From Polaromonas sp. OV174 (GTDB lineage Bacteria; Pseudomonadota; Gammaproteobacteria; Burkholderiales; Burkholderiaceae_C), in the NCBI RefSeq assembly GCF_900112285.1, contig NZ_FOKZ01000010.1, positions 1-64,000 of the forward strand: a stretch of 64,000 nucleotides of DNA. The letters are read 5' to 3'. Positions 28,095-34,439 of this stretch are shown one piece after another (position 1 is the stretch's first letter; the number at the start of each line of letters is the position of its first letter). A program made the position numbers and the translations under genes. The notes below the pieces were generated by a model that saw only the letters and a list, made by a program, of their open reading frames with translations, was not told the origin of the DNA and made no database searches.

Positions 28095-28964
28095 ATGATG
28101 AAACGAAGAAGTGTTCTAACGCACGCCACCGCCTTGGCGGCCTCGGCCATTGCGTTCCCGGCCATGGCCCAGCAGCAGGTGCTCACCGTCGGCCTGATTC
28201 CTTCCGAGGACTCGCGCGCCATGATTGCCAACAGCCAGGCCATGATGGACATGCTGTCCAAGGCGCTGGGCATGCCGGTCAAGGCCTTTGTTGCGGCCGA
28301 CTACAACGGCGTGATTGAAGCACTTCGCTCCAAGCGACTCGACGTGGCTTACCTCGGCCCCTTTTCCTATGTGCTGGGCACCACGGTGGCGGATATCGAG
28401 GCCTTTGCCGTCGCCGAAACCAAGAAGGCAGGGCGCACCTTTTATTACAGCCAGGTGATCGCCCACAAGGACAGCGGCATCAAGACGGTGAACGATCTCA
28501 AGGGCAAGAACTTTGCCTTCGTCGATCCCAGCTCTACCTCCGGTCACCTCTTTCCCAAGGCCGGCTTGATCAAGGCGGGCTTCAATCCCGACAAGGATTT
28601 TGGCCGCGTCATTTTCTCGGGCTCGCATGACTCCAATGCGATTGCCGTGCAGAACAAGAAAGTGGATGCGGCCGCGATTGCCGACCGCATTCTAGATGCC
28701 GCCATCGCCAAGGGCCTGGCCAAACGCGAGGATCTGGTGGTGGTCTGGAAGTCGGATCCCATCCCCGAGTCGCCCACCGTCTGGCGCAAGGATTTGCCCG
28801 CCGACCTCAAGAAGCGTGTGCAAGCGGCCTTCCTGCAAGTCAAAGACATTCCATGGTCCGACCAGGGCCTGCTCAACGGCTTTCACCCGACCAACGATGC
28901 GGCTTACGACATCATCCGCGACACGGCGAAATCCCTGAACCTTGATCTGAGGAAAATGAAATGA
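28095..28964 (+). CDS. phnD: Phosphonate ABC transporter substrate-binding protein PhnD
   Basis: The 289-residue periplasmic receptor starts at ATG 28095 or 28098 (GGAG at 28085-28088). It has a signal peptide MMKRRSVLTHATALAASAIA ending near 'AMAQQQ'. Typical PhnD segments are 'TVGLIPSEDSRAMIANSQAMM', 'YNGVIEALRSKRLDVAYLGPFSYVL', 'FVDPSSTSGHLFPKAGLI' and 'FSGSHDSNAIAVQNKKVDAA', which form the phosphonate site. The upstream open frame to 27924 is not supported. It overlaps phnC by ATGA, and the operon continues phnC-phnE-phnA. It binds intact phosphonates such as aminoethylphosphonate. Confidence 0.95.
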   Translation: MMKRRSVLTHATALAASAIAFPAMAQQQVLTVGLIPSEDSRAMIANSQAMMDMLSKALGMPVKAFVAADYNGVIEALRSKRLDVAYLGPFSYVLGTTVADIEAFAVAETKKAGRTFYYSQVIAHKDSGIKTVNDLKGKNFAFVDPSSTSGHLFPKAGLIKAGFNPDKDFGRVIFSGSHDSNAIAVQNKKVDAAAIADRILDAAIAKGLAKREDLVVVWKSDPIPESPTVWRKDLPADLKKRVQAAFLQVKDIPWSDQGLLNGFHPTNDAAYDIIRDTAKSLNLDLRKMK

Positions 28965-29812
28965 TCAAGATCCAGGGGCTGTCTAAAAAGTATGGCGACT
29001 TTGAGGCCCTGCACCACATTGACCTGCATGTGCGCAAGGGCGAGTTTCTCGTCATCCTCGGCGCCTCAGGCGCGGGCAAGTCCACGCTGCTGCGCTGCAT
29101 CAACCACCTGACGGAGCCCACCACGGGTGAAATCCATGTGGATGGTGAGCGCTCCTGCGGTGACCGTGCCGGCCTGCGCCGGGTACGGCGCGACGTCGCC
29201 ATGATTTTTCAGCACTACAACGTGGTTCCGCGCTTGTCGGTGCTGAAAAACGTGCTGACAGGGCGGCTCAGTGCCATGCCCAGCGTCTTGTCCTGGTTCC
29301 AGCTCTTCCCGCGCAAGGACATCGCGATTGCCAGCGAATGCCTGCGCCGTGTCGCGCTCGAGCAAAAAGCCGACGTCCGTACCGACACGCTCTCGGGCGG
29401 CCAAAAGCAGCGCGTGGGCATCGCACGGGCGCTGGCGCAGCAGCCCAAGGTGATTCTGGCCGACGAACCCGTGGCCAGTCTGGACCCCAAAACCTCACGC
29501 AGCGTCTTGAACTACCTGCGCCAGGCCAGCCGCGAAACCGGCATCACGGTGATTTGCAACCTGCATCAGGTCGACTATGCCCGCGAGTTCGGCGAACGCA
29601 TCATCGGCGTGGCAGGCGGGCGCATCGTGTTCGAGGGCCGGCCCGATGAGCTGACCGATGAAGCCTTGCAACGCATTTATCCCGGTGGACTCGATCCGCA
29701 CGAGCCGTCCGCGTCTCCTGCGGTGGACGCACCTTTGGCGACCAGCCATGCGCCCTTGCACAGGCCAGCCGCCATGCCGATGGCGCAGCAACTTTCCCTG
29801 GAGAAATCATGA
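28961..29812 (+). CDS. phnC: Phosphonate ABC transporter ATP-binding protein PhnC
   Basis: The 283-residue ATPase has Walker A '[18 protein letters not shown]', signature '[15 protein letters not shown]', Walker B '[13 protein letters not shown]' and the switch His in '[19 protein letters not shown]'. The C-terminal tail of about 35 residues (proline/alanine rich) is longer than usual. It energises import with PhnE. It overlaps phnD and phnE by four bases each, so the transporter is tightly coupled. Confidence 0.96.
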
Positions 29813-32985: not shown

Positions 32986-34439
32986 CGACCAACCCCCCCA
33001 TCAAGGACAGCGCTTTGTTTCGTGCCGAAGCATTGCGCATAGGCGGCGAACGCGTTACACGCGAGCGCACACTCAACGTTTTCAATCCCTACAGCCGGGA
33101 ACGCGTGGGCACCGTCCCGCTGGCCACGCTGGACGACGTGCGCGAGGCTTACCGCATTGCGCATGCGTTTCGTCCCACGCTGTCACGCTATGAGCGCTCC
33201 TCCATCCTCAATAAGGCATCGACCCTGTTACGGGCGCGTGCCGATGAGGCCTCCACGCTGATCACGCTCGAATCAGGCTTGTGCAAAAAAGACTCGCTGT
33301 ACGAAATCGGCCGCGTGGCGGATGTGCTGGTGTTCGGCGCCAACGAGGCGCTGCGTGACGACGGGCAGGTGTTCTCATGCGACCTCACGCCACACGGCAA
33401 AAAGCGCAAAGTCATCACCACACGCGAGCCGCTGCTGGGCGTGATCACCGCCATCACGCCTTTCAATCACCCTATGAACCAGGTGGCGCACAAGGTGGTG
33501 CCCAGCATCGCCACCAACAACCGCATGGTGCTCAAACCCTCAGAGAAAGTGCCGCTGTCAGCTTTCTTTCTGGCCGACATCCTCTATGAAGCGGGCTTGC
33601 CGCCCGAAATGTTTCAGGTGATCACGGGCGACCCGCGTGAGATCGCAGACGAGATGCTGATCAACGAACACGTGGACCTCATCACCTTCACCGGCGGCGT
33701 GCCTATCGGTAAATACATCGCCAGCAAAGCGGGCTACCGCCGCATCGTGCTGGAGCTGGGCGGCAATGACCCGCTGATCGTGATGGACGATGCCGACCTG
33801 GACAAAGCCTCCGATCTCGCCGTTCAGGGCTCGTACAAGAACTCCGGCCAGCGTTGCACCGCTGTCAAACGTCTGCTGGTGCAGGAATCCGTCGCGCGCG
33901 ACTTCACCGAGCTGGTGGTGGAGAAAACACGGCGCTGGCGCCATGGCGACCCGATGGATGCGGCTTGCGACATGGGGACCGTCATCAATGAACAGAGCGC
34001 CAGGAGTTTCGAGTTGCTGGTGAACGAGGCCGTGTCACAAGGCGCACGCCTGCTCACAGGCAACCAGCGTGACGGGGCACTCTATGCGCCCACGGTGCTC
34101 GACAACGTCCGCCCTGAGATGACCGTGGTGCGCGAGGAGACGTTTGGCCCCGTGTCCCCAATCATCAGCTTTCGCGACATTGACGAAGCCATCGCCATCT
34201 CCAATGGCACGGCCTACGGGCTGTCGTCAGGCATTTGCACCAACCGCATGGACTACGCCACGCGTTTTGCCAATGAGCTGAATGTCGGCACGGTCAATCT
34301 ATGGGAAGTGCCCGGTTACCGCATAGAGCTCACGCCCTTCGGCGGTATCAAGGACTCGGGCCTGGGCTACAAGGAAGGCGTGCAGGAGGCGATGAAATCG
34401 TTTTGCAACGGCAAGACATTCACCATGCCCTGGGGCTGA
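32982..34439 (+). CDS. phnY: Phosphonoacetaldehyde dehydrogenase
   Basis: The 485-residue aldehyde dehydrogenase has the substrate/NAD elements 'ITAITPFNHPMNQVAHKVVPSI', Lys in 'MVLKPSEKVPLSA' and the Glu motif 'LELGGNDPLIV'. The catalytic Cys is in 'NSGQRCTAVKRLLV', and 'EETFGPVSPIISF' follows. PhnY oxidises phosphonoacetaldehyde to phosphonoacetate with NAD, feeding PhnA. The sequence 'LGGNDPLIVMDDADLDKASDLAVQG' is typical of the family. It is last in the operon. Confidence 0.94.
   Translation: MTTNPPIKDSALFRAEALRIGGERVTRERTLNVFNPYSRERVGTVPLATLDDVREAYRIAHAFRPTLSRYERSSILNKASTLLRARADEASTLITLESGLCKKDSLYEIGRVADVLVFGANEALRDDGQVFSCDLTPHGKKRKVITTREPLLGVITAITPFNHPMNQVAHKVVPSIATNNRMVLKPSEKVPLSAFFLADILYEAGLPPEMFQVITGDPREIADEMLINEHVDLITFTGGVPIGKYIASKAGYRRIVLELGGNDPLIVMDDADLDKASDLAVQGSYKNSGQRCTAVKRLLVQESVARDFTELVVEKTRRWRHGDPMDAACDMGTVINEQSARSFELLVNEAVSQGARLLTGNQRDGALYAPTVLDNVRPEMTVVREETFGPVSPIISFRDIDEAIAISNGTAYGLSSGICTNRMDYATRFANELNVGTVNLWEVPGYRIELTPFGGIKDSGLGYKEGVQEAMKSFCNGKTFTMPWG

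What the first reader, a model, noticed from the sequence alone, without database searches (positions are those of the whole stretch)
28095..34439. Phosphonate operon with an iron alcohol dehydrogenase in place of PhnW: candidate 2-hydroxyethylphosphonate pathway
Seen: phnD-phnC-phnE-phnA-(Fe-ADH)-phnY are coupled by short gaps or overlaps. Known: PhnY makes phosphonoacetate from phosphonoacetaldehyde and PhnA hydrolyses it; the usual source of the aldehyde is the aminotransferase PhnW, which is not here. Inference: the Fe-ADH oxidises 2-hydroxyethylphosphonate to phosphonoacetaldehyde, so an alcohol and not an amine would be the main substrate. The alternative is aldehyde detoxification with phnW elsewhere.
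Basis: partly seen in the sequence, partly recalled or inferred. Interest (0 to 1): 0.68.

Follow-up and report, generated by a model that had tools for sequence, protein, structure and literature searches.

The report
Operon predicted to eat hydroxyethylphosphonate
This gene cluster most likely lets a bacterium import and break down hydroxyethylphosphonate, an alcohol with a carbon-phosphorus bond, using an alcohol dehydrogenase where related clusters use an enzyme for the amine form; nobody has yet tested this in the laboratory, as far as could be found.

Summary
The operon is real: phnD-phnC-phnE-phnA-(Fe-ADH)-phnY, tightly coupled, behind a divergent LysR gene. The Fe-ADH belongs to a named family (TIGR03405). 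Comparison still favours the alcohol reading. (1) 0 of 21 family copies have phnW within 12 kb, yet they sit with phnA-phnY or with phnX, two different consumers of phosphonoacetaldehyde. (2) Eleven distinct genomes carry this module with no PhnW, HpnW or PepM found over cut-off. (3) The linked PhnD has lost both carboxylates that hold AEP's amino group (E177 to R, D205 to S; 0 of 51 close PhnDs keep either). (4) PhnA and PhnY sort mostly by partner (Fe-ADH or PhnW), not by genome. (5) The best profile hit among solved structures is a sulfoacetaldehyde reductase, which shares a Lys-Thr pair beside the metal site. Most likely route: 2-hydroxyethylphosphonate to phosphonoacetaldehyde to phosphonoacetate to acetate plus phosphate. 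Activity and direction are inferred, not shown.

The parts
26951..27841 (-). divergent LysR-type regulator, phosphonate-associated type
   Evidence: TIGR03339 phn_lysR 326.6 bits, just under its cut-off of 341.1; same divergent position, 67-84% identical, in the relatives with phnDCE-phnA-FeADH-phnY behind a LysR gene
27897..27913 (+). conserved site TTTGAATTTGACCAATA in the lysR-phnD intergenic region, probable LysR operator (inference)
   Evidence: footprint over 19 intergenic regions; the only perfect match of TTTGAATTKGNNNRATA in the genome
28095..28964 (+). phnD, phosphonate-binding protein (289 aa, signal peptide by eye); the open frame begins at 27924
   Evidence: TIGR03431 280 bits; alignment to E. 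coli PhnD 3p7i
28203..28205 (+). PhnD Ser37, equivalent of cap residue Thr14 of E. coli PhnD
28686..28688 (+). PhnD Arg198, where E. coli PhnD has Glu177 (binds the amino group of AEP)
   Evidence: role of Glu177 from PMC5700983 (passage)
28770..28772 (+). PhnD Ser226, where E. coli PhnD has Asp205 (binds the amino group of AEP)
   Evidence: role of Asp205 from PMC5700983 (passage)
28961..29812 (+). phnC, phosphonate ABC transporter ATPase
   Evidence: TIGR02315 321 bits
29809..30627 (+). phnE, phosphonate ABC transporter permease
   Evidence: TIGR01097 306 bits
30624..31871 (+). phnA, phosphonoacetate hydrolase (TTG start; an ATG follows at 30627)
   Evidence: TIGR02335 630 bits; in a tree it lies in a group of 23 Fe-ADH-linked PhnA, apart from the two paralogues of the same genome
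31882..32985 (+). Fe-ADH of family TIGR03405, proposed 2-hydroxyethylphosphonate dehydrogenase
   Evidence: TIGR03405 519 bits; model with mean pLDDT 91.5; Fe-ADH fold
32461..32712 (+). metal-site residues Asp194, His198, His263, His277 of the Fe-ADH (codons at 32461, 32473, 32668, 32710)
   Evidence: invariant in 21 of 21 and in 101 of 101 rows
32653..32658 (+). Fe-ADH Lys258-Thr259, five and four residues before metal ligand His263; candidate phosphonate-binding pair (inference)
   Evidence: Lys or Arg at 258 in 100 of 101 rows, Thr259 in 101 of 101; shared with sulfoacetaldehyde reductase 6jko
32982..34439 (+). phnY, phosphonoacetaldehyde dehydrogenase
   Evidence: TIGR03250 883 bits

Best explanation
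A dedicated 2-hydroxyethylphosphonate (HEP) catabolic operon. PhnDCE, with a binding pocket that no longer carries the two carboxylates for an amino group, imports HEP. The Fe-ADH oxidises it with NAD(P) to phosphonoacetaldehyde. PhnY oxidises the aldehyde irreversibly to phosphonoacetate, which pulls the unfavourable alcohol oxidation. PhnA hydrolyses the C-P bond to acetate and phosphate. The divergent LysR protein probably induces the operon. Shown here: gene content, family membership, absence of phnW from these clusters, genomes in which no other aldehyde source was found by the tests made, altered PhnD cap, intact metal site. Inferred: the substrate, the reaction direction, the cofactor and the induction.
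For: Families. No phnW within 12 kb of any of 21 over-cut-off copies in 19 of 299 genomes of the taxonomic family; 19 of 21 have PhnA or PhnX within 12 kb; the Fe-ADH is found in 0 of 191 genomes in which neither was found. The same enzyme pairs with PhnY+PhnA or with PhnX, whose shared substrate is phosphonoacetaldehyde. 80 named loci: no phnW at 200 bits or more. Genomes without PhnW over cut-off: 11 of 19 and 17 of 50, all candidates scored; in 11 distinct ones HpnW was not found either, and none of the 27 searched passes the PepM cut-off. PhnD cap: S/R/S in 46, A/R/S in 3, S/P/S in 2 of the 51 PhnDs at 50% identity or more to this one (itself included), against E and D kept in 12 of 12 PhnDs of the second type in these loci; Glu177 and Asp205 bind the AEP amino group (PMC5700983, passage). 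PhnA and PhnY trees sort by partner: 3 and 4 label changes against 14.4 and 13.3 in shuffles. Two separate AEP clusters serve AEP in this genome. Best profile hit among solved structures is 6jko, titled a sulfoacetaldehyde reductase, whose substrate is the sulfonate analogue. PhpC/FomC of the same superfamily are named HEP dehydrogenase or phosphonoacetaldehyde reductase (PMC5125639, passage).
Against: No biochemical test. PhpC is described as a reductase in biosynthesis (PMC9381506, passage). PhnW is present in 8 of the 19 family genomes with the Fe-ADH, this one included, and at genome level the Fe-ADH is not clearly rarer where PhnW is present (8 of 57 against 11 of 51). Three Fe-ADH operons of a second kind keep Asp205 in PhnD (T/H/D; L057, L058, L137). 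Clusters with an E/D-cap PhnD and an HpnW gene also carry the Fe-ADH (L055, L062, L099). Of the 51 close PhnDs, 22 have Ala where the window and E. coli PhnD have Thr128. Two of 80 loci have a phnW fragment at the edge, in a phnA-phnY cluster about 9 kb away (L130, L143). 16 of 80 loci show no phnA, phnY or phnX, 7 of them with at least 6 kb on both sides. Arg198 in PhnD could also suit an anionic ligand. HpnW was scored for at most 47 candidates per genome, so its absence is not proven. PbfA was not searched for. With the single sequence the best solved hit is a methanol dehydrogenase, 6jko second.
Confidence: 0.8

Rival explanations
1. The Fe-ADH runs as a phosphonoacetaldehyde reductase: a safety valve, or a way to turn AEP into HEP together with PhnW. 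This is the published reading of phpC genes found in AEP catabolism operons (PMC9381506).
For: PhpC is called phosphonoacetaldehyde reductase (PMC9381506; PMC5125639). PMC9381506 section 12 proposes PhnW plus PhpC making HEP from AEP. PhnW is elsewhere in this genome.
Against: 0 of 21 copies lie within 12 kb of phnW. In 11 distinct genomes the module occurs with no PhnW, HpnW or PepM found over cut-off, so no recognised source of aldehyde to reduce. The operon has its own importer with a non-AEP cap and its own PhnY, which competes for the aldehyde.
Confidence: 0.1
2. The imported compound is another alcohol phosphonate, or an ester of HEP cleaved first by a phosphodiesterase; the oxidation chemistry is the same.
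For: Locus L101 has the Fe-ADH with a peptide-type ABC transporter, a calcineurin-like phosphoesterase and a type I phosphodiesterase, then phnA-phnY. HEP occurs as esters in marine dissolved organic matter (PMC5649143, passages). Transporters vary: PhnDCE, GlpT-like MFS, another MFS.
Against: No esterase gene is in the window operon. PhnX and PhnYA both need phosphonoacetaldehyde itself, which points to HEP as the compound oxidised.
Confidence: 0.06
3. The transporter brings in phosphonoacetate for PhnA, and Fe-ADH and PhnY serve other aldehydes.
For: Arg198 in the PhnD cap could pair with a carboxylate.
Against: The same S/R/S-type PhnD is found in Fe-ADH-phnX clusters without phnA or phnY, such as L059 and L064, where phosphonoacetate would be useless.
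Confidence: 0.02
4. The Fe-ADH only disposes of acetaldehyde, the product of PhnX, as an ordinary alcohol dehydrogenase.
For: Fits the Fe-ADH-phnX clusters.
Against: In the window and the other phnA-phnY clusters the product is acetate, not acetaldehyde; the Lys/Arg258-Thr259 pair is not found in the methanol dehydrogenase and the two AdhE-type enzymes aligned; the aldehyde source would stay unexplained.
Confidence: 0.02

Closest known systems
PhnWYA hydrolytic pathway for 2-aminoethylphosphonate
   Same: PhnY and PhnA, the same last two steps and products
   Different: No PhnW in the cluster; an Fe-ADH is proposed to make the aldehyde from an alcohol; a PhnDCE transporter with an altered ligand cap in place of the PhnS2-T2-U2 transporter of this genome's AEP clusters
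TIGR03405 Phn_Fe-ADH ('iron-containing alcohol dehydrogenase PsrA' in NCBIfam)
   Same: The Fe-ADH is a clear member (519 bits, cut-off 424)
   Different: The family name states an association with phosphonate metabolism; the tools show no tested activity for it, and no paper found here explains the name PsrA
PhpC / FomC, phosphonoacetaldehyde reductase or HEP dehydrogenase (cd08182) of phosphinothricin and fosfomycin biosynthesis
   Same: Same superfamily and the same redox pair, HEP and phosphonoacetaldehyde (PMC5125639, passage)
   Different: Biosynthetic, reducing direction; here in a catabolic operon with an importer and C-P hydrolase. Sequences not compared directly
Sulfoacetaldehyde reductase of Bifidobacterium (6jko, 6jkp)
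   Same: Best profile hit among solved structures, second by single sequence and by fold; by its title acts on the sulfonate analogue; shares Lys258-Thr259, Trp204 and Thr270
   Different: Sulfonate metabolism; in 6jko the position of metal ligand His198 is Gln
PbfA, PbfB-D (HpnW) and PbfF accessory enzymes
   Same: Other enzymes that feed other phosphonates into PhnX or PhnYA
   Different: They act on amino compounds; PbfF is a pfam02826 protein, tested and inactive on HEP (PMC12366243, parts 1-2 read)

Membership tests
TIGR03405 Phn_Fe-ADH | score over the curated cut-off | tested here: met
   519.4 bits against 423.7
TIGR03405 Phn_Fe-ADH | found with phosphonate catabolism genes | tested here: met
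   window operon; 19 of 21 copies within 12 kb of PhnA or PhnX; 0 of 191 genomes without PhnA and PhnX carry it
Iron-containing (type III) alcohol dehydrogenases | fold and Asp/His/His/His metal site | tested here: met
   PF00465 and PF25137; model matches solved Fe-ADHs with TM 0.81-0.87 (by query length) in the best ten rows; D194 H198 H263 H277 invariant
HEP dehydrogenase / phosphonoacetaldehyde reductase (PhpC, cd08182) | interconverts HEP and phosphonoacetaldehyde | not testable with these tools
   needs purified enzyme; PhpC sequence and the CDD model were not available
PhnWYA AEP pathway | PhnY and PhnA present | tested here: met
   883 and 630 bits
PhnWYA AEP pathway | PhnW aminotransferase in the cluster | tested here: not met
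   none in the operon; two elsewhere in the genome in other clusters
AEP-binding PhnD (D/T/E cap of E. coli PhnD) | Thr14, Glu177, Asp205 | tested here: not met
   Ser37, Arg198, Ser226
PbfF HAEP racemase | pfam02826 fold | tested here: not met
   the window enzyme is PF00465
PhnWX phosphonatase pathway | PhnX | tested here: not met
   not found in this genome (best 47 bits, cut-off 220); present beside the same Fe-ADH in other genomes

The most novel reading that the evidence does not exclude
A specific, C-P-lyase-independent pathway for 2-hydroxyethylphosphonate (HEP-binding PhnD with an S/R/S cap, HEP dehydrogenase, then PhnX or PhnY+PhnA) is widespread in Beta- and Gammaproteobacteria, was assembled several times with different transporters and different C-P hydrolases, and turns HEP into acetaldehyde or acetate and phosphate rather than releasing ethylene as C-P lyase does.
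Probability: 0.72. Interest if true: 0.75.

Novelty: new variant of a known kind. Interest (0 to 1): 0.66.

Why it matters
[quoted passage not shown] The route for HEP seen in the papers opened here is C-P lyase, which releases ethylene (PMC5649143, passages). A specific hydrolytic route would add a gene marker (Fe-ADH next to phnX or phnA-phnY, PhnD with an S/R/S cap) for HEP use, would caution against counting phpC-like genes as signs of phosphonate production, and reverses the direction proposed in print for phpC genes in catabolic operons (PMC9381506, section 12).

Tried and rejected
Rejected: that the Fe-ADH is the PbfF racemase (different fold family). Rejected: that phnW is missing from the genome (one search found two). 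Not supported: that the phnW clusters share the operator of this operon (no site with up to 3 mismatches in the two cluster regions held; genome scan). The same site was also not seen before the Fe-ADH or phnD of four of five other-type loci tried (L104, L108, L113, L141; a 3-mismatch match in L124), so it belongs to this operon type. Rejected: acetaldehyde disposal as a general role, because the phnA-phnY clusters make no acetaldehyde. Led nowhere: a paper explaining the NCBIfam name 'PsrA' for TIGR03405 (the two papers listed were not opened). Below-cut-off Fe-ADHs in phosphonate clusters (L069, L070, L073) were left out of the counts. Limits of the genome searches: searches scored only the best few candidates per genome, at most 47; searches scored all. 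One place each of PhnW, PhnA and PhnX counted is a partial match under the cut-off. Some contigs end close to the genes, so 'not within 12 kb' can mean 'not on the contig'. Many of the 17 of 50 genomes without PhnW are drafts; L132 is titled a complete chromosome.
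Full report
What is there. The window holds a divergent LysR gene (26951-27841, -) and a + strand operon phnD-phnC-phnE-phnA-(Fe-ADH)-phnY (28095-34439). Every gene of the operon passes the curated NCBIfam cut-off of its family; three junctions are 4-base overlaps, phnE and phnA overlap by 4 or 1 bases depending on the start codon, and the phnA/Fe-ADH gap is 10 bases. The Fe-ADH is a full member of TIGR03405, a family already named for its association with phosphonate metabolism, so the gene itself is not a new kind.

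Is phnW in the genome? Yes. The genome (4.53 Mb, 61 contigs, 100% complete) holds two PhnW genes over the cut-off, at C21 (500 bits) and C13 (475 bits). The C21 cluster is complete for AEP: phnY, phnA and phnR one way, phnS2-T2-U2-phnW the other. The C13 cluster has phnS2-T2-U2-phnW and a divergent phnA. So AEP is served by two clusters with AEP-type transporters, and the window carries one of three phnA genes, a phnY besides that of C21 (phnY was not sought genome-wide) and a different importer. PhnX was not found, nor the flavoenzyme HpnW (47 of 69 candidates scored).

Where does the Fe-ADH family live? In 299 genomes of the same taxonomic family, TIGR03405 passes its cut-off in 19 genomes (21 copies). 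PhnW, PhnA and PhnX were mapped in the same 299 (only the best few candidates per genome were scored). 0 of 21 Fe-ADH copies have PhnW within 12 kb; 19 of 21 have PhnA or PhnX within 12 kb (the other two are both in G215, one with a cut-off phnA at the contig end); the family is in 0 of the 191 genomes in which neither PhnA nor PhnX was found (Fisher 1.3e-9). Of the 120 PhnA and PhnX places, 51 have PhnW nearby only, 19 Fe-ADH only, 50 neither and none both (Fisher 1.4e-5). Neither test is corrected for kinship. At the level of whole genomes there is no clear exclusion: 8 of 57 with PhnW against 11 of 51 without.

Two kinds of partner. Ten copies, the window included, sit between phnA and phnY; eight sit beside phnX, with phnDCE on the other side. 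PhnX was confirmed by HMM in five loci, and all eight adjacent ones plus that of L055 are over the cut-off. L055 has phnX with an HpnW gene between; L049 has a GlpT-like MFS gene and then the start of phnA. PhnY+PhnA and PhnX have one thing in common, the substrate phosphonoacetaldehyde. None has phnW at 200 bits or more; at a lower threshold L130 and L143 have a phnW fragment at the locus edge, belonging to a phnA-phnY cluster about 9 kb away, and L138 has a 38-bit match. The query itself finds the second PhnW of this genome at 456 bits.

Genomes in which no other source of the aldehyde was found. 11 of the 19 family genomes have no PhnW over cut-off, nor do 17 of 50 genomes behind the named loci (50 of the 80 loci were sent). 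HpnW was sought in 29 genomes and passes in 16 (at most 47 candidates per genome were scored, so a miss is possible). Eleven distinct genomes have the module and neither PhnW nor HpnW over cut-off: G187 (= G307, Acidovorax sp. sic0104), G085, G015, G128, G079, and those of L081, L083, L097, L108, L113 and L146. Three of them (G015, G128, G079) are single-contig assemblies. PepM, the entry to phosphonate biosynthesis, passes its cut-off in 0 of 27 genomes searched, these eleven included (the best, in L132's Alcaligenes, has 276.6 bits against 319.6). PbfA was not sought. In these genomes the Fe-ADH is the only candidate source of phosphonoacetaldehyde that the tests recognise, which argues that it works as a HEP dehydrogenase and against the printed proposal that such genes, with PhnW, turn AEP into HEP (PMC9381506, section 12 read).

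The importer has changed its ligand pocket. In E. coli PhnD, Asp205 and Glu177 accept hydrogen bonds from the amino group of AEP, and the D/T/E cap (with Thr14) marks high-affinity AEP binding, while other PhnDs have other residues there (PMC5700983, passages; also PMC10284923, passage). The window PhnD has Ser226, Arg198 and Ser37 at these places; it keeps Ser127, Thr128, His157, Tyr47 and Tyr93 (that these touch the ligand is recalled). Among the 51 PhnDs at 50% identity or more to it, itself included, the cap is S/R/S in 46, A/R/S in 3 and S/P/S in 2: none keeps either carboxylate; Thr128 is Ala in 22 of the 51. The 12 PhnDs of the second type in the same set of loci keep both carboxylates (T/E/D in 11, P/E/D in 1). 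Loci with the E/D cap have an HpnW-like gene in 6 of 12; loci with only the S-type cap in 1 of 47 (L157, 35% identical) (Fisher 1.3e-4). Some loci are the same genome twice. Exceptions: T/H/D in L057, L058 and L137, A/I/S in L134, D/S/Y in two distant PhnDs. A neutral, hydrogen-bonding partner in place of ammonium is what HEP offers. Phosphonoacetate would suit Arg198 too, but it would be useless in the Fe-ADH-phnX clusters, whose PhnD has the same cap (L059, L064).

The enzyme. The model is confident (mean pLDDT 91.5, pTM 0.89) and has the Fe-ADH fold. 6jko, titled a sulfoacetaldehyde reductase, is second among Foldseek matches, second to a methanol dehydrogenase by single sequence and first in the profile search of solved structures; its substrate is the sulfonate analogue of phosphonoacetaldehyde. 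The four metal ligands are invariant in 101 of 101 rows (window, 20 family copies, 80 named loci; a few genomes occur twice). Lys or Arg stands at 258 in 100 of 101 and Thr at 259 in 101 of 101. Of the 14 other Fe-ADHs compared, only 6jko (Lys-Thr) and two below-cut-off members from phosphonate clusters (L036, L037; Arg-Thr) have this pair; Arg258 alone occurs in L038 and L039, Thr259 alone in L040, L045 and L046. The methanol dehydrogenase has Gly-Leu, and neither AdhE-type enzyme has the pair. That it holds the phosphonate is inference.

One unit of descent. Trees were built of PhnA (28 Fe-ADH-linked and 18 PhnW-linked rows that I chose) and PhnY (28 and 16). The label 'with Fe-ADH' or 'with PhnW' changes 3 and 4 times, against 14.4 and 13.3 in shuffles (0 of 500 as low); a single origin is ruled out by well-supported branches. 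The window PhnA lies in a group of 23 that all have the Fe-ADH; the two other PhnAs of this genome lie in the other group (18 PhnW-linked, 5 Fe-ADH-linked). Variovorax clusters with an MFS transporter (L104, L111, L113) have PhnA and PhnY next to those of PhnW clusters, so Fe-ADH and PhnW were exchanged in these clusters more than once.

Regulation. The lysR-phnD intergenic regions of 19 loci share a site around TTTGAATTKGNNNRAT. In this genome the only perfect copy of the 17-base pattern is at 27897-27913; two one-mismatch copies lie on C18 and C38, and the reversed control pattern gives 1. None was found in the AEP cluster regions held, up to 3 mismatches. Co-regulation of the phnW genes by the same LysR protein is therefore not supported; whether HEP is the inducer is unknown.

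What is known. Ten searches of the paper library and the 13 papers opened, mostly as passages, showed none that proposes or tests a catabolic HEP dehydrogenase with PhnX or PhnYA; most subscription journals are not held. The 2025 PbfF paper considered HEP oxidation for a pfam02826 enzyme and found none (PMC12366243, parts 1-2 of 7 read and passages). A study of Fe-ADHs names the PhpC/FomC subfamily cd08182 'hydroxyethylphosphonate dehydrogenase or phosphonoacetaldehyde reductase' (PMC5125639, passages; spelling mended). A 2023 review of phosphonate degradation has no occurrence of the five terms searched for HEP or alcohol dehydrogenase (PMC10574752). Achromobacter phosphonatase operons without phnW carry HpnW instead (PMC11203657, passages).

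Verdict. Observation confirmed; interpretation supported by comparison, not by assay. A new variant of a known kind, the hydrolytic phosphonate pathways, with a named enzyme family given a specific and testable role.

Noticed in passing
L048 (G000:C13:18000-37900), 2980-9619: Beside the second phnW cluster of this genome lie a glutamine-synthetase-like gene, a peptidase C26 (gamma-glutamyl hydrolase type), a different Fe-ADH, an aldehyde dehydrogenase and an EutR-like regulator: looks like a gamma-glutamylation route for an amino alcohol.
   Followed up: partly
L101, 8961-20139: Fe-ADH followed by a peptide-type ABC transporter, a calcineurin-like phosphoesterase and a type I phosphodiesterase, then phnA-phnY: possibly uptake and cleavage of HEP esters.
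   Followed up: partly
L087, 9609-11119: phnDCE and Fe-ADH with only a 131-residue piece that looks like a phnA remnant and no phnY: a decaying copy of the operon.
   Followed up: no
G215 (L049, L056, L068): One genome carries three TIGR03405 copies in three contexts: phnDCE-phnA-FeADH-phnY, FeADH-MFS-phnA, and phnDCE-FeADH alone.
   Followed up: no
L057, L058, L137: Another operon form, with a PhnR-type regulator and two PhnE-like genes, whose PhnD cap is T/H/D: may import a different phosphonate.
   Followed up: no
L124, L144, L149: Paraburkholderia and Pandoraea relatives have the Fe-ADH beside another MFS transporter in place of PhnDCE or the GlpT-like one (Pfam only for L144).
   Followed up: no
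G331:C1:3012241-3013053: PepM-like gene at 276.6 bits, under the cut-off, in an Alcaligenes chromosome titled complete that also has the Fe-ADH-MFS-lysR-phnX module (L132); could be phosphonopyruvate hydrolase.
   Followed up: no
window 34512-35442 (-): Two short genes after the operon look like an OsmC/Ohr protein and its MarR-type regulator, read from the translation only.
   Followed up: no
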